Source: Glaciozyma antarctica PI12 (taxonomy: Eukaryota; Basidiomycota; Microbotryomycetes; Kriegeriales; Camptobasidiaceae). From it: 64,000 bases of DNA. Each line of letters opens with the position of its first letter. Within the stretch, counting starts at the first letter, position 1. A program made the position numbers and the translations under genes. Of the stretch, positions 2,486 to 63,648 are shown piece by piece. A model generated the notes under the pieces. It made no database searches. It was not told the origin of the DNA and was given only the letters and a program-made list of their open reading frames with translations. The DNA lies in the NCBI GenBank assembly GCA_002917775.1, contig KZ627151.1, positions 446,607-510,606 of the forward strand, in the 5' to 3' direction.

Positions 2486-2898
2486 GGATCCGGTCCTAGG
2501 GGTTGATTGGAGGGGTGTCGAGGGAGGCACGACGTGGGATGAGCTTCTGCAAATCTAGCTTCGCTCTATGCCACTGTACCCATTGGGTTGGGATCTCGGT
2601 CTCGTTGCGCGTGCGTGACTGTGTCTGCTTGTGCGGACTCGGACGGCTTGAGACGAGGTCTTGCTGCTCGTTAAGAGGAGCGTTCGCTCGACGCGCTCTC
2701 TCCTCTTCTCTCCTCTCTTTCTGCAAGCCCTGCAAGCCCTGCCCTGGTCTATCTTGCACTTGCACCAGCCTTGTTAAGCGAAGCTCTCAGCCCAGTCCTC
2801 CCCCTCGAACCTCCTGCCCACAGAACGCCTATCAAAGCTCGACGCGACGACGGTCCTCTCTTCCTCCCTCTCCCAGCGGGAGGCGACAACCCCTCATC
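2486..2898. other. Intergenic: eL38 3' end and RRG7-like 5' leader
   Basis: About 410 nt between two plus-strand genes. The second half is very C/T-rich, typical of yeast leaders. The downstream frame is open through this region, but its codons show no conserved content before the ATG at 2899. Confidence 0.4.
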
Positions 2899-3684
2899 AT
2901 GCCGCCTCGCCCTCGTCTACGCCGTCTTCCCAGCCCCTCTCCCCACCCCTCCACCTTTCCCTCCACCTCAGCTCCTTCTCCCTCCACCTCCGCCCCTCCC
3001 CCTCCACGCCCTTCCAACACCTCCCTCGGCACCGCCTTCGAGCACCTAACCCTTTCCTTCCTCACCTCCCCCCCTCTCTCCCTCTCCCTCCTCCACTCCG
3101 GCGGTGCGAACGATCACGGCATCGATCTGCGCGGGTGGTGGGAATCCCCTCCTGGGAGCTCGGAAGGTGGGAGCTCGGAAGGTGTAGGGACGAAGGGAGG
3201 ACGGAGGAAGAGGTGGAGCGTGATTGTGCAGTGTAAAGCTGAGACAAAGAGGTTGGGACCGAGGGTGGTTCGGGAGTTAGAAGGTGCGGTGGGGTACGAA
3301 CGAGGGAAGCGAGCGACGATCGCTATGCTCGTCTCCTCCTCAGGGTTCTCGCACGAAGCGTTGTTAAGAGCTGGAGCGTCAACAGTACCGATGTCGTTGG
3401 TGTCGTTGAGGAAGGAGGGACGGGGAACGGTCTGTGAGGCGTTGGTGGTGAATCCGGTGTTGAGGGAGTTGTTGGGGAGCGCGTTGGAGGTGTTTAGGAG
3501 AAGGGAGGTGGATGGGGGTGCGGGCGGAGTGGGGATTAGATGGGCTGGGAATGAAGCGGGGTGATGGTGCGTATGCGGTTTGCGAGGGGGTGGCGAGCGA
3601 GCTGACGAGGTTCTTATTCCCCTTCGCAGACGGAACGGAATTGACGAAATCAAGACGCTGAGAGTGATGCATCTGCTTGTGTGA
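2899..3684 (+). CDS. RRG7: RRG7-like protein with restriction-endonuclease fold
   Basis: The protein resembles fungal Required-for-Respiratory-Growth 7 (DUF2034), a mitochondrial protein with a PD-(D/E)XK nuclease-like core. The first ~45 residues are Arg/Ser/Pro-rich and fit a mitochondrial presequence. Then come LGTAFEHLTL, the GGANDHGIDLRGWW block and WSVIVQCKAE, which together form the G-x-D...Q-C-K signature. After this lie GPRVVRELEG and a C-terminal helical part. The frame meets TGA at 3562-3564, but a canonical intron (donor 3561, GCTGAC branch, acceptor ending 3629) would extend it to TGA 3682-3684, ending LRVMHLLV. I prefer the spliced end, with moderate confidence. The role in mitochondrial DNA upkeep is inferred from the family name. 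Confidence 0.62.
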
Positions 3685-5014: not shown

Positions 5015-6855
5015 CTAATCCCAGTCCTCATCATCGCTCTCCTCCTCATCGCTATCCCCCATATTCCCCTTCCTTTGACTCAACGCCGCCGCCAACGCGC
5101 TCGCCAAGTCTCCTCCCCCACCCGCGACCACCGCACCTCCCACCGCCGCACCTCCAACGACCGTCGCTGCCGTCCCCGCCGACGAGCCACTAGGAGAATC
5201 CTCGTGCACGCGAGGAGCGGGAGGAGCAGCGTTTGGATCCGTCTGTGAGGGTTTAGCGAGGAGCGAATTGGGAGCGAGGAGAGGAAGAAGTACCTTGCGG
5301 AGGTTTCCAACACCTTTGCCTTGAATGTCAGCGAGGAGGTTCATGCGCGCTGGAGGAGCTGCGGGACTGGGTGCGCCTGCGGGTGGTGGGGGAGGGGGAG
5401 GTGGGCCACCTCCGCGCGCGGGGGGTGGAGGAGGAGGGGGAGGAGCTGTGAGGGATTAGTGGGGACGGTGGAGAAGGTAAAAAGAACGTACGAGGGCCGG
5501 CACCGCCGCGAGCGGGAGGAGGAGGCGGGGGCGGGGGAGGGGGAGGGACTGGGAGACGGGCGGTTAGCGATGCTTGTAGACGAGGGAGAGAAGACGTACC
5601 TGCACCACCACGAGCTGGCGGAGGAGGTGGCGGGGGAGGGAGAGGAGGTCCACCTAAATTGCAAAGCGATAGTCAGTTCCCCGAACTCGCTCGCCTCAGG
5701 AACTAAGACGCACCGTTCCCACCCCTAACAGGCGGCGGAGGTGGCGGTGGAGGCACAACTCCTCGTGTGGGCGGAGGCGGGGGCGGCGGAGGAGGCATCA
5801 TCTGCTGTGGCGGAGGCGGCGAGCTCTCCTGCTCCTGCAGACTTGCCATTCCTCCCATCGCGCGTCGAGGAGCAGGAGGTGCGGGTGGCTTCCGCTTGGT
5901 GGTGGGCATTGCCGAGAGACGGGGAGCGGGGGCGGGAGGAGGGACGCGCTTGGTTGTGGGAGCGGGGGGAGGGCCGCCTGAGCCTTCGACATAGTTGCGG
6001 ATGAAGGACTCGTTCTTGAGGATTTGGGACTGCGGAATGCCTTGAATTAGCGGGATTGACAAGGAGAGGGTGAAGGCGTACCCTGCTGATACCCTGAGAC
6101 TCGAGCTGCCCCAGCAATCTCTCCCAACTCGGATCGACATTCGTGCTGCTGAATCCCTTCTCGGCGTCGAAGCCCATGTGCGCTACATGATTGAACCCGC
6201 TCGGCGCGCCGATCATGCTCTTACTAATCCCGCCCTTCTTCCCTTTCGACCCGCTCGACGAGGACGACTTCTTGAGCGACGAGGTCGAGGTGCCGGCCTT
6301 CTTGGCGTACTTCTGGCGCTGTGCGATCTTCTTGAACAGCTCGGCAGCTTCGGATTCGGACGAGAAGGCGAGTCCGATCATGCATTCCTTAGGTGAAGAA
6401 GCGTCAGCTGGTGAATGGGGACAGGAACAAGAGAGGAGCTCACGTCTCCGGGGAAGGTGTGGAAGAAGGTACGGTCCTGGTAGTACGACATGTCCTCCGT
6501 GACCGTGTGCTGCCAGATCACTCCTCGAGTACCCTACGAACGCACTATCAGCTTCAACGTCCTTCCAGCTCGGGCAGCGGACTCACCGCCAAATCCACAA
6601 CCTTGAGCCATCCGCCCGTCGTCCCCCATCCAAAGACTACCGCCCCACTGATCCCACTGTAGCTCCACTTGCTCGGATCCGGCCACGCATAGTAGATCCT
6701 CCCAATCGCGGCCGTGAGAACTGCGAGAGTGGGTGAGTCGAGTTGCGGGTGCGTGGGAGGGAACGGGCCGCACTCTTGTCGGAGGAGGAGGCGACTGGGG
6801 CGTGCTTCTTGACGAGCGCCTTCTCGGAGGAGGTGAGGGTCGAGGTGGACGGCAT
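5015..6855 (-). CDS. LAS17: WASP family actin nucleation-promoting factor (Las17/Wsp1)
   Basis: Las17/WASP activates the Arp2/3 complex to build actin patches at endocytic sites. The order of parts is complete. An N-terminal WH1 domain spans several exons (MPSTSTLTSSEKALVKKHAP, the WTTGGWLKVVDL region, ECMIGLAFSSESEAAELFKKI). A basic Ser/Lys/Gly linker follows, then a CRIB-like box IGAPSGFNHVAHMGF. A long run of Pro-rich blocks (PPPPPPPPTRG type) comes next, then a WH2 motif LLADIQGKGVGNLRKV and an acidic Trp tail EEESDDEDWD ending at TAG 5015-5017. The CRIB box, absent from budding-yeast Las17, suggests control by a Cdc42/Rac GTPase. About six introns are evident. The start ATG (6853-6855) faces calmodulin, so the two genes share an upstream region. 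Confidence 0.9.
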
Positions 6856-7332: not shown

Positions 7333-8301
7333 ATGGATCAGCTCGCAAGTCGCACACGTCCCCACTCGTGGAACATCCAGCTGACAACCCTCGTTCTCGA
7401 CTCAACAGACTGAAGAACAGGTCAGCCTCGCCACCGTACCCAGCTCAGTCCTACAGCCACTGACTCCATTCCGCGCAGATCGCCGAGTTCAAGGAAGCCT
7501 TCAGCCTCTTCGACAAGGGTCCGCTCCCTCCCCCTCCCTCAGACCTCCGCTAACTCTCTTCCTCCCCTCCCCCTCCTCGCTTCACCTCTCCCGACCTCCT
7601 CCTCAACCAGATGGAGATGGAACGATCACGACTCGCGAGCTTGGGACCGTCATGCGCTCCCTGGGCCAGAACCCGACCGAGGCGGAACTGCAGGACATGA
7701 TCAACGAGGTGGACGCGGACGGCAACGGCCAGATCGACTTCCCCGAGTTCCTCAGTACGTTCTCCCTCCTTTCCTGCTTAACTTCCATTCTATGGCGCGC
7801 GTGGGGAAGCGGCAGTTGGGTTATTGATGGAGCTGATGGCGGTTTGTGCACAGCGATGATGGCGCGCAAGATGAAGGATACCGACTCGGAGGAGGAGATT
7901 CGCGAGGCGTTCAAGGTGTTTGACAAGGATGGAAACGGGTTCATCAGCTCGGCGGAGCTGCGTCACGTCATGACCAACTTGGGTGCGTCCGCAGTCTCCC
8001 TGCTCTCTCGTGCTGTGGTGGCGGGTGAAGAGCGGGAGAGGGAGTGTTGGGGAGCGGAAGCTAACGTGGCCGTTTGTGGTGCAGGCGAGAAGCTCTCTGA
8101 GAACGAGGTTTCAGAGATGATCCGCGAGGCAGACGTCGACGGCGATGGACAGATCAACTACGTGCGTTCTCCCTCTTCCTCGCTGTCCAACGTACTGACC
8201 TCTATTCATCCAGGCCGAATTCGTCTCCGTACGACCTCCTCGTTCTCCCTTCTCGACGCAAGCTGACCTCGGTTCGCTCGCAGATGATGATGAGCCACTA
8301 G
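7333..8301 (+). CDS. CMD1: Calmodulin
   Basis: Calmodulin is the cytosolic EF-hand calcium sensor. Eight exons (7333-7344, 7409-7420, 7479-7518, 7611-7754, 7854-7982, 8085-8161, 8214-8228, 8284-8301) total 447 nt and give 148 residues. All four calcium loops are intact, with [36 protein letters not shown] and [12 protein letters not shown]. The protein starts MDQLTEEQ, without the usual Ala at position 2, and ends MMMSH. The first intron (7345-7408) has a GC-AG border with donor GCAAGT; no GT donor there keeps the frame. Two exons are only 12 nt and two more are 15 and 18 nt. The sequence is near-identical to other fungal and animal calmodulins, so the call is secure. Confidence 0.97.
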
Positions 8302-13230: not shown

Positions 13231-15130
13231 CTAGTGATGCAACTCCCCCTTCGCGTCCGCCTGCGCGACGACTCCAAGAAATTTGACCTGCTGCGCCACG
13301 CTCTGCAGCACTCCCAACACGTCCCTGTTCGCCTCCACGAACTGCATCTTCTTGTACACCAACCCCTCTCCCTTCTTCAGCTTCTCCCCCTTCCACCCAT
13401 CCTTGACCAGCGCCTCCTCCTCGATCACCCACTGCTCTACGAGCTGCGCGACGGCCCGAAAGCGGAAGCGAGGGAGACGCGGGAGGAGGTGGTGAGGAGT
13501 TTGAAAGTTGAGGCCGCCGTGAAGGAAGTCGAGATAGGTCGGGCACGAGATGTCCATCGTTGTGCGGAGCTGGCGGTGCGGGTGGGATTCGAGGAGTTCG
13601 GTGTGGGGGATGATGTCCGAGGTGACGGAGATGGGCTGGGAGAAGTGGGAGAGGACGATCTGCGGGAGTCAAGTGTTAGTTGAGGGAGAAAGGAGCGGAG
13701 AGAGAGAGCGCACTTGGACGTGGAGAGGAGAGGTAACGGCGAAGCTGACGAGGACGAAGAGGACCTTGTTGCCGGTCCCTTCGACGCCGCGTACGACGAG
13801 ACCAAACCAGGTCCAGAAGAAAGCGATCCCGACGAATTCGGCGAGGCGGAGCTTGAAGAGAGGCGAAGCACGAGCCGGCCACTTGGTGAGCATGAAGACG
13901 TAGGAGTTGACGAATAGGTTGAAGCGCGCGAAGCACATGATGATGTAGTAGAGATTGTGTCTGCGAAAAGAACGCAGGATCAGTTGTTGCTGCGAAGCTC
14001 GGTCGGGAGGAACGTACTGATAGGGGAGAACTGCCTTTGCAAAGCCGTCAAACGCCATGACGCGCTTGTAGTACGAGCTTCGGAGCGAGGCGAAGAACTT
14101 GGTCGAAATAGCGAAGAAGGGGAGGTGCTGGATGTCGGGGTCGTGCTCAGGCGAGTTCGTGACCACTGCGGAGGAGGATCGTTAGTCGCGTACGTCGATA
14201 AAGCACCTGATCCAGCTCACAGTGGTGCACGTTGTGATTATCACACCACCAGCCGAGACTGATCCCTCCCATAAAGTTCGCAATCGCTGTCCCGAGAACT
14301 CGGTCCGTCATCCAATCTCCCGTCAACCCCGTGTGGCCGGCATCATGCGCGACGAATGTGATCTGATGCCACCATCCTCCGAGCGCGACGGCAGCTGCGA
14401 CGTATCCCAGCGTCGATTCGGCGATTTTGTAGAGGTAGATGAAGAGGAGGAGGAGCGAGGTGTAGATGACGAGGGAGGGGCCGTAGCCGGAGAGGAAAGG
14501 AGGGGGAGTGTCGAGGCCGAGCGCGTGGATTCTTGCATGGAGAATGCGCTGCGCTTGTCGAAGGTGGGCCTGGTAGGAGGGAGTGAGGGGGAGAAGGTCC
14601 GCGGCGGCGAGGGGAGGATCCACCATCTCAGTCGTGAGGAACGGCGAGGATAGAGGTGCGGCCTTCTCCACCTCTTCTGACCCCTCCCGAGGCGACGATA
14701 CAGTGATACTGGGCGTCGGAATCGGCCACATTCCCAACTGCACCGGCGGGACCATATCCCTCCAACCCTCGTCGTCCAGCTCGACCTTTCCTACAACCCA
14801 GCGTCCCATCCTTGCCTGCACCGTCTTCCCCGTGTGGTACGCCTCGATTTCGTTGCTCGCATCCCGCCCGACGTAGTGCAAGATCGCGAGGTCTCCTCCT
14901 GGGTGGAGGGCGAGCCAAGCTGAAGGGATTCGGTAGACGAGAGGCGCGTGGATGACGAGTAGTTGTCCTGCTGAGATCCTCGAGGCAATCTGCGCTCGAG
15001 AGAAGGTCTGGAGGGAGGCGGAGTTGGAGGGGAGGGGTACGCCGGGACAGGGGAGGAGGGAGGAGAGGCGTGAGGAGGGAGGTGCAGAGGCGGGAGCACT
15101 GGGATCGAGCTTCGCAGCGGTCTTTGACAT
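13231..15130 (-). CDS. Cytochrome b5-fused sphingolipid delta-8 desaturase
   Basis: Fungal delta-8 sphingolipid desaturases insert a trans double bond into the long-chain base of glucosylceramides in the endoplasmic reticulum. The N-terminal domain is a cytochrome b5 with the heme-binding ALHPGGDLAILHYVGRDA block. A linker and then membrane segments follow (SLVIYTSLLLLFIYLYKI, YVAAAVALGGWWHQITF). Three histidine boxes are seen: HDAGH, HNVHH and QTPHH in GGLNFQTPHHLLPRLPR. More membrane helices lie between (FVGIAFFWTWFGLVVRG). The start MSKTAAKLDPS lies just before the cytochrome domain; several introns interrupt the gene. The QxxHH box with fused b5 separates it from delta-9 desaturases. The delta-8 assignment rather than another front-end type is by family resemblance. 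It is divergent from elongin C. Confidence 0.88.
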
Positions 15131-15566
15131 CTGTGGACGTAGGCAGAGATCAGTAGCAGCTCCAAACGCCCTTGTCTGGAAGGAACGTGCTCGTCGACAC
15201 CGAGGACGAGCACGACCGGATCCCAGCAGCACCTCCCCAGCCTGTTTGTAGCAGCATCCTCCTGCCTGTACCTTCGCAATGCCCGTACAATCGTCCGCTG
15301 CTGCGCCGGTCCCATTCCCTTGCCAAACGAACGCGCTGCGCCCGGAGTAGAGGAGAGCAACGCGACTCACGATCGAATCCTCGTTCCTCTCCCGATGAAG
15401 GAGCTCTTGCTGCCTAGAGTCAAGGAGAGCCTTCCTATGCTGTGTGGCCTGCACGGGGCTGTCAATCTGAAAGAAAGGAGACGGTGAAGGGAGAGGAAGA
15501 GCGAGCGGCCGAAGTCGACAAAGCTGGTTTGTGTTGTTGCTGCTTGACATTCCACCGACCCTCGAA
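15131..15566. promoter_or_regulatory. Divergent promoter of desaturase and elongin C
   Basis: About 435 nt between the two start codons. The desaturase frame stays open upstream, but no in-frame ATG with conserved sequence is seen. No specific site is claimed. Confidence 0.4.
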
Positions 15567-16105
15567 ATGGCTGCCGCTGTACGTTCCACCTGTCAAGCGC
15601 TCAGAAGCTTTAGCTGACGACTCGCACTCCACAGCAAAGTCCCTACGTGACCATCATCTCTTGCGACGGTGCGCCCCGACTCTCTCCTCGTGAAGCTCCA
15701 CTCACAGCTCCCACAGGCCACCGCTTCATCATCCCTCGCTCCGCCGCAGAAGGTAGTGCTTTCATGAAGGACTCGTTCGCCCGTGCGCCCGTTCTCCTCC
15801 CCTTCTTCGTAGCCCCGCTCACGCTCACACCAACGCAGCCGACAGCGCGTTCGAGGAAGCAAGGAAGGGTATCCTCAAGCTCTCAGAGCAGCGCGCCGAG
15901 ATTGTGGAGAAGGTTGCAGAGTACCTGATGTACAAGGAGCGGTACACGGGGTCGAAGGAGGATATCCCCGACTTCCAGGATCGCGTCAAGCCTGAGATTG
16001 CGCTCGAGCTGTGAGTCTTCGCGAGGGCAGGAGGAGGAGGAAGAGGGAGCTGATGGTGCTCGTGGTTGGTGCAGGTTGACGGCGAGTGACTTCTTGGATT
16101 GCTGA
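15567..16105 (+). CDS. ELC1: Elongin C
   Basis: Elongin C is a small BTB/Skp1-fold adaptor that links cullin ubiquitin ligases to substrate receptors. Five exons (15567-15578, 15635-15668, 15717-15782, 15839-16010, 16075-16105) give 104 residues. The family pattern is clear: YVTIISCDGHRFIIPRSAA at the start, the GSAFMKDSF loop, ILKLSEQRAEIVEKVAEYL, the YKERYTG strand region with EDIPDF, and the ending PEIALELLTASDFLDC. The third exon is best ended at 15782; ending it at an earlier GT would delete the loop that the family keeps. No odd features were found. Confidence 0.93.
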
Positions 16106-40452: not shown

Positions 40453-41366
40453 TCAGACCTTCTTGATCGTCCAGAGCTGATCGTTTGATTTCTGCATCTT
40501 TCCATCAGCCTCATCCCAAGCAGCGAGAGAACGACGCCGACGCACCTTATTCCACACGGAAAGAACGGTACTCTTGTACCCACCCGCCGTCATCAGCGAC
40601 GCCCCCGTCACCGCCTTAGGAGACTGATCCCCAATATGATCATGCGCGATAATATAGTACATCTCCACCAACGCTCGTTCGTCGACAAAGCTTTCCTCAA
40701 AGACTCGAGACCGCTTGCCGACTTCTCCGACGTGCTTGACGAGGTACCACCATTGCTTCGTCTTTTCGAGAGTCTTGGTTCCGGATTGACCGCTGCCGAC
40801 TGCGAGAAATATCAGCTTTGAAGCGGCGAAAGCAGAGGCAGAAAGCGCACCAGCGCAGGCGTCTAAGGGAGTCGTCAGTTCGACTCCGAAGCGAGAGTAG
40901 AGGAATGAAACGTACAAGAAACCATCGCATGATTCGCTCCACCATTCTTCTTCGCATCCCACTGCGCACTCGCACCTGCACACACCACTCCATCAGTCCG
41001 CAACCCCAGAATCAAAAGCCGCAAACAACTGAACGCACATTTCCCTTGTCCGCTAATCCGCACGAGGTTATCCTTGATCTACTCCACACCATCAGCTCCT
41101 CACCCCTGCTGGAAGAAGCGAAAAAAACGCACTTGAATCTCCACCGGCGTCCCCTTCGCAATGGGGAACAAATTCGTCACCTGCCCCCTCACAAAGCTCA
41201 ATCGCTTCCCACTCTTGACGTGCGTAATAACGTAGTTCCCATTCCCCTTGAGCGGCATCTTGGAGGCTTTGACTTGGAGGTTGATGAGGTTGATGGCGCT
41301 GGCATCGGTTGCGCAGGAGGCGAAGGGGAGGAGGAAAGCGAGGAGAGTGAAGCTGGTGATTCGCAT
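40453..41366 (-). CDS. Secreted protein A of a tandem three-gene family (short form)
   Basis: The product has a clear signal peptide (MRITSFTLLAFLLPFASC). The first domain carries YVITHVKSGKRLSFVRGQ, then IKDNLVRISGQGKCASAQWD and HAMVSYACAG. A TLEKTKQWWYLV block follows. The C-terminal domain has EMYYIIAHDHIGDQSPKAVT, then GGYKSTVLSVWNK and the end DQLWTIKKV. The same landmarks in the same order occur in the two genes to the right, so this is the third paralogue. It lacks the Ser-rich linker and the extra block that the others have between the KQWW motif and the DHL-type motif. Motifs such as QW/QWW spaced through the chain and the NVxTGKxL-like strand recall beta-trefoil lectins, but the match is weak. 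Four introns are seen. Function unknown. Confidence 0.75.
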
Positions 41367-41386
41367 CGTTCGTTCGTTCGTTCGTG
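41367..41386. repeat. (CGTT)n microsatellite before the start of gene A
   Basis: Five CGTT-type units sit directly upstream of the start codon of secreted gene A, in its 5' UTR. Confidence 0.7.
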
Positions 41387-41820
41387 GCGTGGAAGGGAGG
41401 AGGCAAAGCAGAGATTCCTTTTCGAGGGCGACTATACAGCGCTCCCCGAGCGAGAGAAGGGAGGGACGTGAGGACGGAAATTCGCCTAGGTCGAGGCCTC
41501 CCCACGACGAATTTGGTTCTGCCCCCGATTTTTTGGGGTTCGACGAACTGAACCGCGCTTCGATGTGAGGGCCTCAATCCCCTTTGCGATCGAGGTAGAA
41601 CGATGGAGCAGAAGGCCGCGGACCAGCGCAGACGACGAGCAGGGCTTCGCAAGCGGGACGTTCTTGAGCAGGTCTTCGCAACCGGGACGTACTCGAAAGA
41701 ATCGTCTCGTTCCACAGGAGGAGAAAGCTGTCTAGCGGCTTATAGTGCAAACAGCTGAGAACTGGCCTCGCTGCGGGGTATAGTAGGAAGGGAAGGATGC
41801 GATATGAGGGGAGGAGACGT
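41387..41820. promoter_or_regulatory. Promoter of secreted gene A
   Basis: About 430 nt between paralogues A and B. It should contain the gene A promoter and the gene B terminator. A TATAGTG-like sequence occurs near 41740; no site is firmly assigned. Confidence 0.35.
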
Positions 41821-43391
41821 TCAGGCGGAGGTGACGATCCATTGCTGGTTCTCGTCCGTCTGCGAAGAATCGTCAGCGGTGAAGAGGGGCGAAGGGAGGA
41901 AGGGGGGAGTGTAGAGAGGGAGGGAACGAACCTTGTCGAGGACGACGAGTTCTTGAGAGATGTACCCGCCGAAGGTGTCCATCTGGGACGAGCTGATTGC
42001 GCGCGTGTCCATATCCGTCAAGTGGTCGGTCGTGATGCTATCGAATGCGAAAACGTCAGCTTTGAAGCGAGGAGGGAAGGAGAGGAACGCACATGCAGTA
42101 GGTCGAAGCCGCACGACGCTCAATCTCGCGCTTCTCAACAGCGTGAGCGATCCCGACGTGTCCTCCGCGCTTATGCTTGGTGAATCGCTTCCTGTTCGCA
42201 GCCCAGTATGCCTGGAGACGAGCCTCGCACTCGACGTGTCCTCCTCCCTTCTTGTCGCTGTACACGTACTGCGTGCTTTCGAGTCAGTTTTTCGCAGCTA
42301 GATTGGCGGGGCGAACGACAAACGGGCCAGTGGGCAGCGAGCCACCATCCGGGGTGACGGCAGACCCAGGTGTACCTAGATCGCGAACGGCCTGAGCACT
42401 GGTTCCGCAATACTAAGCGCGAAAGACGAACCGGTTCTTGGGGTCGACGCTGGAGCTCGATTCTTCCGCAGAAGAGGTAGAGCTGGGCGAGGCGGAGGTG
42501 AAGTCAGAGTCGGAAACTGAGGAGCCTTCGGACGAGGAGCCGCAGGGGATGAGCTTCCAAAGCTGCTTGGCGAGGACTGCGAGAGGGAAGGACGAGCGGG
42601 ATTAGTAAAGCGGCGTCGATACTGGCGAGCGAAGACTTACCGAGGTCCGACTCGTTTGAGACGGCGTCAGCTCCGACTGAGGCGATGGAATCGAGCGTTA
42701 GCTGTGCTCTCACAGAGTGAAAGATCGAAAAACTCACCCTTGCAGGCGTACGAAACTGCAAAGAGCGACAAGTCAGCTCCTTCGCACGCCGCCGTTCGAG
42801 GAAGACTCACCCGCGGCGTAATCCCATGATCCAGCGGCGACTCCCTTGAGAGTCTGGAAACCCCACTGGGCGGACGCGCACTGTCGAATCGCGTTAGCTT
42901 CCGCACGAGAGCGAAAACGGGAAGACAGCGCACCTTGGTCAAACCTGAGCGGGGAGAACGTCAATTCAGGGGCACGCGAACGTCGAACAAGAGGGGCGCA
43001 CCATTGATGACTGTCCCAGTATCTCCCTCCCCACTATCCGTCTCTAGCGCAACAGCCGTCTTCTCACTCTGGGTGTGGAAGTTGGTCGTGTCCGAATTGC
43101 GGACAAAGGAGAGGAACTGCGTTCAACGCCGATCAGCTCGCCGCACCCCTCCTCCCTCCCAAGCCCTCACCTTCCCAGTAGCGACGTTCTCGAGCGTATA
43201 AGATCCATCGAAAGTGATAGCGGCGTTCTGCGGGAACTGGGTCAGTGCGCCCTCCTGAAGCCCCTTTGTCCTGTCCTCCAGCTCACAGTGATAGCAGAAG
43301 CGACAGCGGCGTTGTTCACGACCCCACCTTGGGCGTTGACGAGAGCTGCCAGCACAGCGAGGGGCAGGGTGAAGGAGGTGAAGGACCTCAT
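41821..43391 (-). CDS. Secreted protein B of the tandem family (two-domain form)
   Basis: The signal peptide is MRSFTSFTLPLAVLAALVNA. The first domain shows GSYTLENVATGKFLSFVRNS, then LTKCASAQWGFQTLKG, AVSYACKG-type (here VSYACKG), and VLAKQLWKLIPCG. A Ser/Thr-rich linker follows (SVSDSDFTSASPSSTSSAEE), probably O-glycosylated. The second domain has QYVYSDKKGGGHVECEARLQ, AYWAANRKRFTKHKRGG, TTDHLTDMDTRAISSSQMDT and GGYISQELVVLDKTDENQQW, ending IVTSA. Many short exons are used. The aligned landmarks prove kinship with genes A and C. I know of no named family for this. A wall-associated or lectin-like role is inference from secretion, the glycosylated linker and repeated QW motifs. Confidence 0.78.
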
Positions 43392-44477
43392 GGCTTGCTG
43401 CAAGATCTTAAGGGACGCGGATGGCGAGGGGTTGGAGTGGGGGGCGAGAGGGGTTGAAAGAGGGTGGAGGTGTCGAAGAACTGTGTGGGGGCTGAAGGTG
43501 AAGCTACCTGAGCGGAAGTGGGAGGAGTGAGAGGAGAAGAGAGAGCTGCGGGAGACAGGAGCGCAGTGTGTTCAGTCTGAGCGCGGTCCCGCTTGTGAAC
43601 TTGTACTTCCCGTCTTTTGGCTGTTGCTCTATGCAGCAGGAGAATTCCACCATAGAAGAGTAGAAGCAAGCTACTGAGTTCTCCCTGAGGAACGACGAAC
43701 GAACCCCCGAAAAAAAAAAAAAAACGCAAATCGAAGCGCAAACCGACGCTCCTCCTCCTCCTCTCCAGAGCTCTCCAGATCTCTCCAGCTCTCTGATCCA
43801 CCACCACAAAGCTCTTTCTTTCCCCTCCGTTCTTCCCAGCGACCGAGCAAGCGAGGTCAATCCCGAGTCCACCTGCTAAAACGCGCGCATTCCTCCCTCG
43901 CGTCACCATCGCAAGGCACGAGCAGACGCACGCCTCTTGCAGTAACAGATAGAGATTGCACACGAGAGAGAAGAAATCCAGCTTCTTTGCAGCTGGGAGA
44001 TAAGGATGAGGAACGAGCAAAGAACTGAGCAGCGGTGGAGAATCGCGCCGCTCCCACCTCGCTCGCTCCCCCCTTCACGCGATAATCGGCAGCGAACGAC
44101 CCCTGCTCGTGCACCTCCTTTCTCTGCAGAGCATCGCGATCGACGCGAGTAGCGACGCTCCCTTTCTCGCTTCCTTTCTCGCACGAACAAAAGCCTCCTC
44201 GCTCGCTCTCACCAAACTCTCTCTCTCGCCGCACAATGGGAGAAGACCACACAAAGTCTTCCAGAATCAACACACGATGGGAGGCTCAAAATAGTGTGAG
44301 AGGGAGGTGGGGAGAGGGATAAACTAAGGACAACCGAATGGGGGAGGCGAGTCAAAAGGGAAACGGCATATCAAACGCCGGACTCTGGGGGGTGGTGCGA
44401 ATAAAGAGGAGGGGCGCCGAACGAAGAGGCTGGAGGATAGGAGAGGGGGGGACGGTCGGCGAGTGGGGGAGACGCGG
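43392..44477. other. 1.1-kb region between secreted genes B and C
   Basis: Holds the gene B promoter and the gene C 3' flank. A pure A15 run occupies 43710-43724, notable in this GC-rich DNA. Open frames on the minus strand show no conserved content. Confidence 0.45.
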
Positions 44478-46001
44478 TTAGGCGCGGGTGATGACCCATT
44501 GCTGGTTCTCGTCCGACTGGGAAGCACGTTAGATCCGATGAAGAGGAGGGAGAGGGAGACGAGCGTACCTTGTTCCAGGTCTCGAGGACGGTCGAAGTGT
44601 ATCCACCTACCTCGCTTATCAGCCCCGTCAAGAACGAGAGAGGAGGAAAAGGACGCACCAGGGCTACTCATCGTTCCGCTCCCAATCGCGCGCGTAACCA
44701 TATCATGGAGATGATCAACGGCAATGATGTAGAACTTCTGATCCGCGCGCTTCGCAACGACCTTGGCGAGCTCAGAGTGAGAGCGCTTAGCCATACGAAG
44801 GTTGTCACGACGCCAGTTGGCGAGGACGTCAATGCACTCGGGGTGGCCTGGGCCTGCAGTGATGTAGTGGTAGTGCCTGCTCCCCTCATCAGCTAGGTCC
44901 ATCGGAGAGAGGGAGGAGGGAACGTACGCGTTAAGCCAGACCCCGGGGTGCTGGCAGATCCAGGTAGAGCGATCGCGAACGTCGACGGAGCTGTAATCGA
45001 ACGTAGCGGGATCGTGGTCCGTGGGAGCGTAGCCTGCGGCGGCGGCTTGAGAGGAGGAGGACATGTTGCTGGAGGAGGTCTTGCTCGACTTGGGCTTGGG
45101 GACGACGGCGGCCTTGACCTCGACGATGGGCGAGGACTCCTCAGAGGGGGAAGAGAAGTCGTCCGAGGAGGCGGAGGAGGAGCTCTTCTGGGGCTTGACG
45201 AAGAGGGTGACGTTGTCGTCGTCGTTGGACGAGTCGGAGGAGGAAGAGTCGGAGGAATCGACGGGGACGAGGAGCCACCTGCGCAAGTGTGGTCAGCGCG
45301 ATTCCTGCGCAAGGGAGCGAACGAACGCACCATTGCTTGGTAGTCTCGAGGGTGGAGCTACCGGTCAAGAGGCCCTTGCCGACGGCGCAAGCGTACGAAA
45401 CAGCAGCGTTGTTGAACTGCCCGGTCGAGGCGTCGCCTCCTTGCTGGAATCCCCATTGAGCAGAGATGCACTGCGGGAATCACGTTAGCTTTGTACGCGA
45501 GAACGAGCGCGAGAGAGGGCATACCTTGTTGTTACCTCCTGAGAGACGAGCCTACGGAGGAAAGCGAGCCGTTAGATCGACGCGATCAGCAACAAAGAAG
45601 GGGGGGGGGGCTTTTACGAACCTGGTCTCCGTTGAACTGTAACAGGCGCTCTGATTAGCTCGTCACTCTCAAGAAGAATGTGATGAGAGGCGCACCTGGA
45701 TGTCGAGGGGAGCGCCGTTGAGCTGAGGGAAGACGTCGGTTGTCGAGTCTCCGCGAACGAACGAGAGGCTACGTCCAGTCGCGACGTTGACAACGTTGTA
45801 AGCTCCATCGCCAGAGAGGCTATCGGAATCCTTCTGCAAAGAGGAGAAAGGGCCAAGGTGAGTTTATAGTCCCATCACAAACGTCTTGGCGCGTACGTGA
45901 AGGGTCGAAAAGACTCGGGCGTTGTCGATGATTCCACCGACGGCGTTGGCGGCGGTGGCGAGAGCGAGGACTGAGAGTCCTACGGTGGTGAAGGAGAGCA
46001 T
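44478..46001 (-). CDS. Secreted protein C of the tandem family (two-domain form)
   Basis: The signal peptide is MLSFTTVGLSVLALATAANA. The first domain reads GAYNVVNVATGRSLSFVRGD, RLSGGNNKCISAQWGFQQGG, NNAAVSYACAVGKG and STLETTKQWWLLVPVD. A long Ser/Asp-rich linker follows, with SSSSASSDDFSSPSEESSP. The second domain has STWICQHPGVWLNAY, YHYITAGPGHPECIDVLANW, FYIIAVDHLHDMVTRAIGSG and GGYTSTVLETWNKSDENQQW, ending VITRA. It is the longest and best-defined member, so it is the reference for the family. The three genes lie head to tail on one strand within 5.6 kb, as expected from tandem duplication. About nine introns. Function unknown. Confidence 0.8.
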
Positions 46002-46622: not shown

Positions 46623-47189
46623 ATGTCGTTTAAACGCTTCCTCTCATCGTCCTCTCGTCTCCCAACAGCGACGACGACGACGACTCCCCTTCTTCGAACG
46701 ACCAAAGACCCTCTCCTCTCCTCTTCAACAGCCCAACACTTCATCCTCCCTTCCGGCGCAACCTTCACCGTCCGACCCCCACCTTCCACCCTCCCTTCCA
46801 CTCTCCCCATCCCTTCCTCCACCGCCTCCTCCCACCCCCTCTTCACTACCTCTTCCTCTCCCTTCCTCCTCCCTCCCACCTCCCCTTCCTCCTCCTCCCG
46901 CCAAGCCCCAAGCACCCACCACACCCTCTCCCCCACCGACATCTCTGCCCTGCAAGCTCTCCGTATTTCAAACCCGGTGCATTGGACCCGCTCGCGCCTG
47001 GCAACAAAGTTTGGGATCCCTGCTACGGTCGTAGGGACGCTTGGATGGGGAGAAGGAGCCGAGGCGAGGAGGGCGGAGAAGGAGAGGAGGGAGGTGATTG
47101 GAGCGGAGAAGGAGAGGAAGGAGGGAGCTTGGGGGTGGAAGAAGGCGGTGGGGATGGAAGAGAGGAGGAGGAGGAAGGCTCTTTGGTAG
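46623..47189 (+). CDS. MRPL20: Mitochondrial ribosomal protein mL58 (MRPL20 family)
   Basis: mL58 is a fungal large-subunit mitochondrial ribosomal protein. This intronless frame gives 188 residues. The N-terminus (MSFKRFLSSSSRLPTATTTT) is a typical mitochondrial presequence. FILPSGATFTVRPPP follows. The diagnostic part is LSPTDISALQALRISNPVHW then TRSRLATKFGIPATVVGTLG, which matches the family's L-R-x-x-(D/N)-P-x-x-W-(T/S)-R-x-x-L-A-x-K-F core. The tail is a Glu/Lys/Arg-rich helix ending RRRRKALW. The length is close to that of yeast Mrpl20 (about 195). The only odd feature is the lack of introns. Confidence 0.8.
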   Translation: MSFKRFLSSSSRLPTATTTTTPLLRTTKDPLLSSSTAQHFILPSGATFTVRPPPSTLPSTLPIPSSTASSHPLFTTSSSPFLLPPTSPSSSSRQAPSTHHTLSPTDISALQALRISNPVHWTRSRLATKFGIPATVVGTLGWGEGAEARRAEKERREVIGAEKERKEGAWGWKKAVGMEERRRRKALW

Positions 47190-48981: not shown

Positions 48982-49836
48982 ATGAAATCTTTCACCGTCG
49001 CCGCCGCCGCCCTCGCCCTCGTCGCTCCCGCTTTCGCAGCCCCCGCACCTCTCCTCGGCCTCGACCTCAACCTCAACCTCTTTAACAACGGTAAGGGCAG
49101 GAACTCCGGTCCTTTCCAGTTCACCTCGACGTACGACGTCATCGCCAGGCCCTCCGAAGTGTACGTCCTCCCTCTCCTTCGCCACATTCCGCGCCCGTCC
49201 CCCCCCCCCCCACCCCATTCCGTGATGACGGCTCTTCGCAGCGTGAGCGCTACGAACGCCCCTACGGGCGGACAGGCTGGAGCCTCGGGATTGTTCAGCT
49301 ACGGGATCAACAGCGTTGAGGATATCATCTGCTGGGTACGGCCCCACTCCTCCTCGCTCGCTCCTCGCTGACCTCTTCGCAGAACATTACTGCCTTCGTC
49401 TCCTCCACGTATCAGAGCGCCGCTACGACCTCAACGCACATTCACCAGGGGAACAAGGGCCTGTACGTTCCCTCGCTCTCCCTCTTCTTGAGTCGGAGCT
49501 CATCCCCAACTTCGCGCAGTGCTGGTCCTCCCCGCATCACTTTCCCCAACCCCGAGATCGTCGGAGACTCGAGTGTCCAAAGTCGTCGCACCTCTATCGG
49601 ATGTCAGAAGGGACCTTTTAGGACCGGCATTCCCGTCAACGGAGGTACGTTCATCGTTCTTCGAGATGCGGGATGGGAGCTGACGCTCGCTCGCAGTTGC
49701 TGGAACCGATACTGGAACTGGATTCACGCTCAAGCAGATCGAGGATAACCCTTCCAACTTCTTCACCGACGTTCACACTGCCAATGCTGTTCCTGGGGCG
49801 ATCAGGGGACAGCTTAGTGCTAAGAAGCAGAATTAG
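48982..49836 (+). CDS. Secreted CHRD-domain protein 1
   Basis: The signal peptide is MKSFTVAAAALALVAPAFAA. The body is one CHRD (chordin-type) domain: FTSTYDVIARPSEVVSATN, GLFSYGINSVEDIICWNITA, THIHQGNKGLAGPPRITFPN, RTSIGCQKGPFRTGIP, then TGTGFTLKQIEDNPSNFFTD and VHTANAVPGAIRGQL, ending SAKKQN. The HIHxG and VHT...GAIRGQL motifs are typical. In fungi CHRD proteins are extracellular and of unclear role. Five or so introns; one contains a C14 run (about 49199-49213). Its closest relative in the window is the next gene on the same strand. Confidence 0.83.
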
Positions 49837-61997: not shown

Positions 61998-63378
61998 CTA
62001 TACCCTCACTAGAACCGCCATGCTGAGCCCTTGCGCCAATGCGATCGTGAAGAGGAACTGGATCCTGCGACTCCTCTGCCCGTGCGAGATGGGTGGGGCG
62101 TGCGCATGGTCGAGTGGGGACATGGAAGGGTCGGGGAGGACGAGATGGCGGAGCGACCGAAGCTGCGTGACGTCGAAGGATGAGCGAGAGGTGAGAGGGG
62201 AGAAAGGGAGGACGCACGAGGAAGAAGAAGTCGGCAAGGAAGACGTAGAGGAAGATGCTCCAGAATAGCCAGCCGGTGGCACCGAGTAGACCGGCGAGGA
62301 GGGTGACGATGATCCTGCGTCGTCGTCAGCTCTCGCATTCCACAGGTTCGCAGGCGAGGAGAGGGAGGACGCACCCGACGAACTTGTACCCCTCGTACGC
62401 CACCAGATCCACGACCGTTCCTTCTTCGCCGATACCGAGGAGATAGCATCCCAGCTTAATGCACATGAACTCGAGGAAGAGGAGCCCGAACGCTTTGGAG
62501 GCGGTTTGGCCGAGGATACGAGGGTCGAACTGGCCATGAGCTCCAGCGATGACGGCCGAAAGGAGAATGTAGGTCGTTAGGGCCATGACTTGGGAGGAGC
62601 AGCGTCAGTTTGGGCGAGATCGAGCAAGGGAGAGGCGAGGAGGGGTGGTGCAAGGAAGGGAAGGGGAGAGCTCACCTGGGATATAGAGGTCGGGACAGTT
62701 GATGTCCTCCCTGGGAGGTCTCCATCCCTCGGCAACTCCACTCGTCTCGCTCCTCCTCAAGCTCCTGCTCCAAGGCCTGTGCCTCCACGGCCACAGCACG
62801 AGCCTCAGCTTGTTGAGCACGTAGCCATTCGACACATTGAAGCTATGCTTCAAGTGCGCGAGGGGGAGGAGCCTCGTAAAGTTTTTGTCGAGGTACGCCG
62901 ACCCAGCGTCGAACGCGTGCTTGCCAAACTGCACTCCCATCTGCGCCGTCGCGTCATTCATCCCAGGCCACTGGTCGCCCCCACCGCCTCCTCCTCCTCC
63001 AAGCCACGGCGCGCCTCCTCCGCCCCCACCTCCATCCATGAAAGGCTGCCCCTGTTGAGGAGCTGCGTAACCACCTCCAGAGTGGCCGGCGGGGATGTAC
63101 GAGTCGGGCAGGCCTTGGAGGGAGGGGTTGTGGTAGGCGTTTGACGAGTGCAGCTGCTGCCCGGCGTTCGCGGAGACGGGTGGAGAGGAGAAGCGTTGGT
63201 ACGAGTCGGAGGAGGAGGGGAAGGCGGAGTGGGCGTCGGGGGGAGGAGAGGTCGATGGGATTTGGGACGGAGGGTGCTGAGGGCGCGGGTGCTGGAGAGG
63301 GGGAGGGGAGCGCGAGGAGCCGTACACTAGAGCAGGTCGTGTTAGCGATGTCTGAAAGAACAGCCCGGAGCACGCACT
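61998..63378 (-). CDS. YIF1: YIF1 family Golgi membrane protein
   Basis: Yif1 works with Yip1 and Yos1 in COPII vesicle traffic between endoplasmic reticulum and Golgi. The N-terminal part is Pro/Ser/Gly-rich (MYGSSRSPPPLQHPRPQHPP, then GGGGGGGAPWLGG). The conserved core follows: GKHAFDAGSAYLDKNFTRLL, LKHSFNVSNGYVLNKLRLVL and REDINCPDLYIP. Membrane helices come next: MALTTYILLSAVIAGAHG, SKAFGLLFLEFMCIKLGCYL, LLAGLLGATGWLFWSIFLYV and FLFTIALAQGLSMAVL, ending VRV. No in-frame ATG begins the first long exon. Splicing at donor 63377 and acceptor 63327 joins an A to TG, making ATG across the junction and giving MYGSS as the start. Confidence 0.87.
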
Positions 63379-63648
63379 GGTTCCTGTTGCCTGCTGACGA
63401 GGTGAACGCGAGGATGGGGGCAGCTCAGTCGTGTCGTGTCGTCGTCACGGGCGCTGTTCTTGAGGTCGTTCGCTAGAGCCCTGCTGGTGAGCTTCGTCTG
63501 AGTTGACTGGCGTGGTCGGTGGAGGAGAGTTGAGTCGGTGAGTGACACGTTGAGGAGAGAAAGCGCCAAGGCAGCGCGAGCTTGCTCTCATCCGAACCAT
63601 CGACCCCGGCTCCAGCTGGGCTCACCGGGGCAGTCACCACAAGGAGGC

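What the first reader, a model, noticed from the sequence alone, without database searches (positions are those of the whole stretch)
40453..46001. Tandem array of three secreted paralogues of an unnamed family
Genes A, B and C lie head to tail on the minus strand. Each has a signal peptide and the same ordered landmarks: a TGKxLSFVR strand, KC(A/I)SAQW, VSYAC, a KQ(W/L)W block, a Y/F-x-I-x-x-DH motif, GGYxSxVL and a final QW-x-I stretch. Genes B and C add a Ser-rich linker and a GHxEC block. I cannot place them in a named family; spaced QW motifs faintly recall beta-trefoil lectins. An expanding, secreted, linker-bearing family suggests wall, adhesion or host/competitor contact roles.
Basis: partly seen in the sequence, partly recalled or inferred. 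Interest (0 to 1): 0.72.

Follow-up and report, generated by a model that had tools for sequence, protein, structure and literature searches.

The report
Secreted lectin-like gene trio
A fungal genome carries three neighbouring genes, with a fourth relative elsewhere, for probably secreted proteins that look like distant relatives of sugar-binding lectins and carry likely processing-cut sites at one fixed place; interesting but not revolutionary.

Summary
Genes A (41366-40453, 212 aa), B (43391-41821, 309 aa) and C (46001-44478, 356 aa) lie head to tail on the minus strand; aligned pieces are 32-49% identical. The tandem copies are old, not freshly expanding. With the variable insert removed, 3 of 4 cores match the R-type beta-trefoil model PF14200 at E 1.2e-4 to 6.9e-4, below its curated cut-off; 0 of 8 reversed or shuffled controls did. 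QxW motifs in subdomains 2 and 3 and a Cys pair fit; the first subdomain lacks QxW and threefold repetition was not detected. New point: the insert sits between subdomains 2 and 3 and in all four proteins carries Kex2-type sites ([ILVM]xKR); 11 of 12 basic-Arg pairs lie in inserts. The genome has adjacent S8 and P-domain matches, the kexin layout. Best reading: remote R-type-like secreted trefoils, probably nicked by Kex2 into two chains. The fold rests on sequence only; secretion, the cut, the ligand and the role are inferred. No fungal collection was on hand, so range is untested.

The parts
40453..41366 (-). Gene A, 212 aa, 6 exons (41366-41133, 41078-41039, 40975-40916, 40862-40851, 40799-40546, 40491-40453)
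   Evidence: splice model; 5 of 5 introns with a YTRAY motif
40456..41240 (-). Trefoil-like core of A: S1 aa 43-84, S2 aa 85-136, S3 aa 163-212, interrupted by a 26-aa insert (40737-40660)
   Evidence: boundaries from the four-way alignment; PF14200 E 0.73 on the full protein, no PF14200 hit on its core
40711..40716 (-). Kex2-type site VGKR in the insert of A (K144-R145)
41821..43391 (-). Gene B, 309 aa, 12 exons
   Evidence: splice model
42101..42547 (-). Insert of B (aa 148-259): Ser-rich linker, two-Cys WVCRHPG...GHVEC block, then four basic-Arg pairs
   Evidence: no Pfam family for the block
42128..42133 (-). Kex2-type site VEKR in B (K249-R250)
44478..46001 (-). Gene C, 356 aa, 9 exons
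   Evidence: splice model
44735..45265 (-). Insert of C (aa 147-306): long Ser-rich linker, WICQHPG...GHPEC block, three basic-Arg pairs
   Evidence: only Strep_his_triad at E 0.17, taken as chance
44747..44788 (-). Kex2-type sites MAKR (44788-44783) and VAKR (44752-44747) in C
45942..46001 (-). Signal-peptide-like N terminus of C (A: 41366-41310, B: 43391-43332)
   Evidence: hydrophobic 11-mers of mean Kyte-Doolittle 2.1-2.4 within the first 30 residues of A, B and C, against at most 1.4 after residue 30; cleavage points judged by eye, no signal-peptide program was run

Best explanation
A small, old family of secreted, single-unit R-type-like beta-trefoil proteins. The chain makes subdomains S1 and S2 (S2 with a likely disulfide), then runs out into a variable surface insert, then closes the barrel with S3. 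The insert carries Kex2-type sites 4 to 17 residues before S3 (the site nearest to S3 in each protein), so a Golgi kexin would cut the folded protein into an N chain (S1-S2 plus insert) and a C chain (S3, about 54-67 residues) that would stay together non-covalently. The secreted product most likely binds a glycan, on the fungus's own wall or on another organism, and the Ser-rich and two-Cys insert of B and C adds a spacer and a second contact surface. Shown: genes, paralogy, insert position, site conservation among four paralogues, presence of a kexin-like gene. Inferred: the fold (from sub-threshold profile matches and motifs), secretion (hydrophobic N terminus), cutting, glycan binding, biological role.
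For: PF14200 matches the cores of C, B and D at E 6.9e-4, 1.2e-4 and 6.3e-4 and full-length B at 0.0024. A (full, E 0.73), B and C match in one register at S1; D matches the same profile positions at S2. Controls: 0 of 8 reversed or shuffled cores gave PF14200, and their best match to any family was E 0.0086 (8 of the 10 made were given). QxW is present at the end of S2 and S3 in all four; the S2 Cys pair is invariant. [ILVM]xKR lies in the insert in 4 of 4 proteins; shuffles of the inserts of A, B, C and D contain one in 6.7, 5.1, 6.1 and 15.4% of 5000 trials. Of 12 basic-Arg pairs 11 lie in inserts, which make up 365 of 1055 mature residues, binomial p 7e-5; the motif was chosen after looking. 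S8 protease and P_proprotein matches lie side by side on C7 (31988-30481, minus), the kexin layout. In the mushroom toxin CCTX2, Kex2p cuts at a KR site in vitro and the fragments stay together (PMC13324453, passages).
Against: No core or full protein reaches the PF14200 cut-off of 25.6 bits (best 23.1); full C and D and the core of A gave no PF14200 hit. No convincing solved relative. S1 has no QxW. Profile comparison of the three thirds does not show threefold repetition (column shuffles reach the observed score in 27, 89 and 6 of 100). PF14200 and PF00652 searches of the whole genome gave no hit, not even in these genes (the second also rang in no control genome). AlphaFold2 on one exon of A alone gave a helical model at mean pLDDT 46.7: uninformative, but not supportive. 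In A there is one site only, 17 residues before S3. KR without the aliphatic condition turns up in 22-61% of shuffled inserts.
Confidence: 0.5

Rival explanations
1. Plain secreted R-type-like lectins that are not cut; the KR pairs are incidental in a disordered, charged loop.
For: Inserts are rich in Ser, Lys and Arg; KR alone turns up in 22-61% of shuffled inserts.
Against: The stricter [ILVM]xKR form is in 4 of 4 and 11 of 12 basic-Arg pairs fall in the inserts.
Confidence: 0.3
2. Kex2-processed precursors whose true products are peptides cut from the insert, or S3 itself, with the rest as carrier.
For: D has three closely spaced sites (LVKR, IVKR, IEKR) and B has four basic-Arg pairs; Kex2-processed repeat proteins are said to be widespread in fungi (PMC9769878, seen only as a search listing with the start of its abstract).
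Against: The stretches between sites are short (D: AIVKR, AIEKR) and not alike between paralogues, and A has a single such site; S3 is well conserved and ends in a trefoil-type QxW.
Confidence: 0.1
3. Not a trefoil: an unnamed small secreted fold.
For: No family above cut-off in Pfam or NCBIfam, no solved relative, no threefold repeat by profile, S1 lacks QxW.
Against: Repeated PF14200 hits, absent from 8 controls; QxW and Cys spacing.
Confidence: 0.2
4. Wall or adhesion proteins, as the first reader suggested (a role, not exclusive of the fold readings above).
For: Ser-rich linkers in B and C, of a kind that could be O-mannosylated (inference).
Against: No hydrophobic C-terminal tail for a GPI anchor; A and D have no Ser-rich linker comparable to B and C.
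Confidence: 0.2

Closest known systems
R-type (ricin-B-like) beta-trefoil domains, Pfam PF14200 RicinB_lectin_2
   Same: Profile register, QxW in two subdomains, Cys pair in subdomain 2, core of about 150-160 residues
   Different: Below the curated cut-off, first QxW missing, insert of 26-160 residues between subdomains 2 and 3
CCTX1-3 chimerolectins of Coprinopsis cinerea (PMC13324453: outline with abstract, passages and section 13 seen; not the whole text)
   Same: Three paralogues next to each other; beta-trefoil units; a conserved KR site that Kex2p cuts in vitro without the pieces separating
   Different: CCTX has four trefoils plus a C-terminal domain that holds the KR site, and is called cytoplasmic; here there is one secreted-looking trefoil-like unit with the KR sites inside it and no such domain
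Kex2-processed repeat proteins (PMC9769878, search listing and start of abstract only)
   Same: Several dibasic sites in a secreted-looking protein
   Different: No repeated peptide cores; sites nearly confined to one insert

Membership tests
R-type beta-trefoil lectin (PF14200 / PF00652) | Score at or above the curated Pfam cut-off | tested here: not met
   0 of 4 full proteins and 0 of 4 cores; best 23.1 bits against 25.6
R-type beta-trefoil lectin (PF14200 / PF00652) | (QxW)3, one per subdomain | tested here: not met
   QxW in S2 and S3 of 4 of 4 proteins, none in S1
R-type beta-trefoil lectin (PF14200 / PF00652) | Internal threefold repeat | tested here: inconclusive
   hhalign of thirds not above column shuffles; but the same PF14200 positions match S1 in A, B, C and S2 in D
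R-type beta-trefoil lectin (PF14200 / PF00652) | Cys pair within a subdomain (recalled; common, not universal) | tested here: met
   invariant in S2 of 4 of 4
R-type beta-trefoil lectin (PF14200 / PF00652) | Beta-trefoil fold and glycan binding | not testable with these tools
[quoted passage not shown]
   proteins of 212-356 aa with one trefoil-like unit
Kex2-processed repeat proteins | Several similar peptide cores separated by Kex2 sites | tested here: not met
   site and spacer pattern of the four inserts, read by eye
Kexin substrate | Cut by kexin in the secretory pathway | not testable with these tools
   only sites shared by four paralogues and a kexin-like gene

The most novel reading that the evidence does not exclude
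A fungal secreted family in which a kexin cuts a single beta-trefoil exactly between its second and third subdomains, making a two-chain lectin whose third subdomain can be released or exchanged, used in contact with competitors or predators.
Probability: 0.12. Interest if true: 0.65.

Novelty: new variant of a known kind. Interest (0 to 1): 0.4.

Why it matters
If right, it adds an unclassified branch of R-type-like trefoils to a fungal secretome and a clear, testable processing site: proteolysis inside one trefoil rather than between domains. It also gives a natural series (A and D without, B and C with an extra two-Cys block) to ask what trefoil inserts are for.

Tried and rejected
Solved-structure searches with A alone gave nothing; with the three-protein profile (CLK3, AIR2) and the core profile (Cas9) only chance matches at E 0.21 or worse. 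NCBIfam on 4 proteins: one chance match at E 0.093. Scans for relatives in bacterial/archaeal genome contigs and in viral contigs: 22 and 20 pattern matches, 0 relatives; no fungal collection is on hand. The hit of B on C13 (E 0.001; L023, E 6.8e-4 unfiltered and 0.008 filtered) was rejected: in-frame stops and neither conserved Cys. L051, L053 and L054 of the motif search rejected. Threefold repeat by profile: negative. Structure of one exon of A: pLDDT 46.7, not used and not searched. Paper searches: Rhodotorula with ricin B lectin and secreted, Rhodotorula with beta-trefoil, RicinB_lectin with Microbotryomycetes: 0 papers each; Kex2, basidiomycete, lectin, propeptide, secretome, four of five: 11 listed, none opened; beta-trefoil, effector, Kex2, fungal: 1 paper, opened in part; toruloides with secretome, secreted proteins and lectin: 2 listed, judged irrelevant unopened; ricin B, lectin, red yeast, basidiomycetous yeast, three of four: 6 listed, judged irrelevant unopened; mycocin with Rhodotorula: 42 papers, 15 listed, none opened; Kex2 with aliphatic, P4 position and processing: 0. 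The organism was not identified; phenylalanine ammonia-lyase (PF00221), meant as a marker for Rhodotorula, was not found, so I name no genus.

Full report
What is there. Reading the minus strand and building splice models by hand gives gene A (41366-40453, 6 exons, 212 aa), gene B (43391-41821, 12 exons, 309 aa) and gene C (46001-44478, 9 exons, 356 aa). With D (8 exons) there are 31 introns, GT-AG by construction, 49-72 nt, and 29 of 31 hold a YTRAY motif. Some introns are shared: the last intron follows a Lys in phase 0 in A, B and C, and C intron 7 and D intron 7 are both phase 1 and lie within two aligned codons of each other. This supports models and homology alike. No transcript data were available.

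Relatedness. BLASTP between the three proteins gives 32-49% identity and E 4e-8 to 2e-51 per piece. At DNA level only short pieces match (99 and 41 bases between B and C, 29 between A and B, none between A and C at E 0.01). The duplications are therefore old, and 'expanding' is not supported.

A fourth member. A weak hit on C8 in the genome search with C (E 1.1e-5, stops inside) proved real when its other exons were found. Gene D (L008 minus 2330-1128, 261 aa) keeps KCLSSAW, VSYVC, KQWW, FYIMATDHLIDM and QQWRI. A search with D brought back only itself and gene C. A motif search found 6 sites, 3 of them known members and 3 without other family matches. The family has at least four members here.

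Fold. Pfam on full proteins gives PF14200 RicinB_lectin_2 at E 0.0024 for B and 0.73 for A, and no PF14200 for C or D. With the insert cut out, the cores of C, B and D score E 6.9e-4, 1.2e-4 and 6.3e-4; the core of A does not match. All lie below the curated cut-off. Of 8 reversed or shuffled cores (of 10 made) none matched PF14200; their best match to anything was E 0.0086. The QxW at the end of S2 and S3 and the Cys pair of S2 are invariant. Against this, S1 has no QxW, the three thirds do not align to each other above column shuffles, there is no solved relative, and searches of the genome with PF14200 and PF00652 returned nothing (the second had no positive control). I put the trefoil at about 0.75-0.8, as a remote relative and not a formal member.

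The insert and the cut. Between S2 and S3 lie 26, 112, 160 and 67 residues in A, B, C and D. Of 12 basic-Arg pairs in the mature proteins, 11 lie in these inserts, which are 365 of 1055 residues (binomial p 7e-5). Each insert has at least one [ILVM]xKR: VGKR in A, VEKR in B, MAKR and VAKR in C, LVKR, IVKR and IEKR in D. The one nearest to S3 lies 17, 9, 4 and 9 residues before it in A, B, C and D (positions). That Kex2 favours an aliphatic P4 is recalled; a paper search for it found nothing. The pattern was chosen after looking and the paralogues are related, so the p-values are optimistic. A kexin-like gene is indicated by S8 and P_proprotein matches side by side on C7. In A, C and D the S3 part has no Cys (B has one), so a cut S3 would be held mainly by the fold. 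CCTX2 sets a precedent: Kex2p cuts it and the fragments stay together (PMC13324453, passages). It is a precedent for behaviour, not for family.

B and C only. Their inserts hold a Ser-rich linker and a two-Cys block (WxC-HPG...GHxEC; 42368-42227 in B, 44962-44834 in C, each spanning an intron) without a Pfam family. They are most simply read as one addition shared by B and C, or a loss from A and D.

Role. A secreted glycan binder is the most economical function; whether it faces the own wall, a competitor or a predator cannot be told here. Tandem defence lectins are known in the mushroom C. cinerea (PMC13324453, section 13), which makes that reading reasonable but not shown.

Verdict. It is a new variant of a known kind, with one testable surprise: Kex2-type sites, shared by four paralogues, inside a single trefoil-like unit.

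Noticed in passing
window 48982-49836, +: Five-exon gene model for a 205-aa secreted-looking protein with a CHRD domain (PF07452, E 3.9e-12), on the other strand beyond gene C; its MKSFT start resembles MRSFT of B.
   Followed up: partly
window 46623-47186, +: Gene for mitochondrial ribosomal protein L20 (PF12824, E 3.8e-16) between gene C and the CHRD gene.
   Followed up: partly
window 2500-3564, 5725-6582, 7385-8266, 14147-15592, 62605-63444: Open frames matching RRG7, a P21-Rho-binding domain, EF hands, cytochrome b5 plus fatty acid desaturase, and YIF1 (19 of the 24 frames of 250 aa or more listed were scanned): ordinary eukaryotic neighbours.
   Followed up: no
G000 whole genome: No phenylalanine ammonia-lyase (PF00221) found at E 1e-10, which would be unexpected for a Rhodotorula (recalled); the exon-wise search may have missed it.
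   Followed up: no
G000:C7:30481-31988, minus: S8 protease and P_proprotein matches side by side, a likely kexin.
   Followed up: partly
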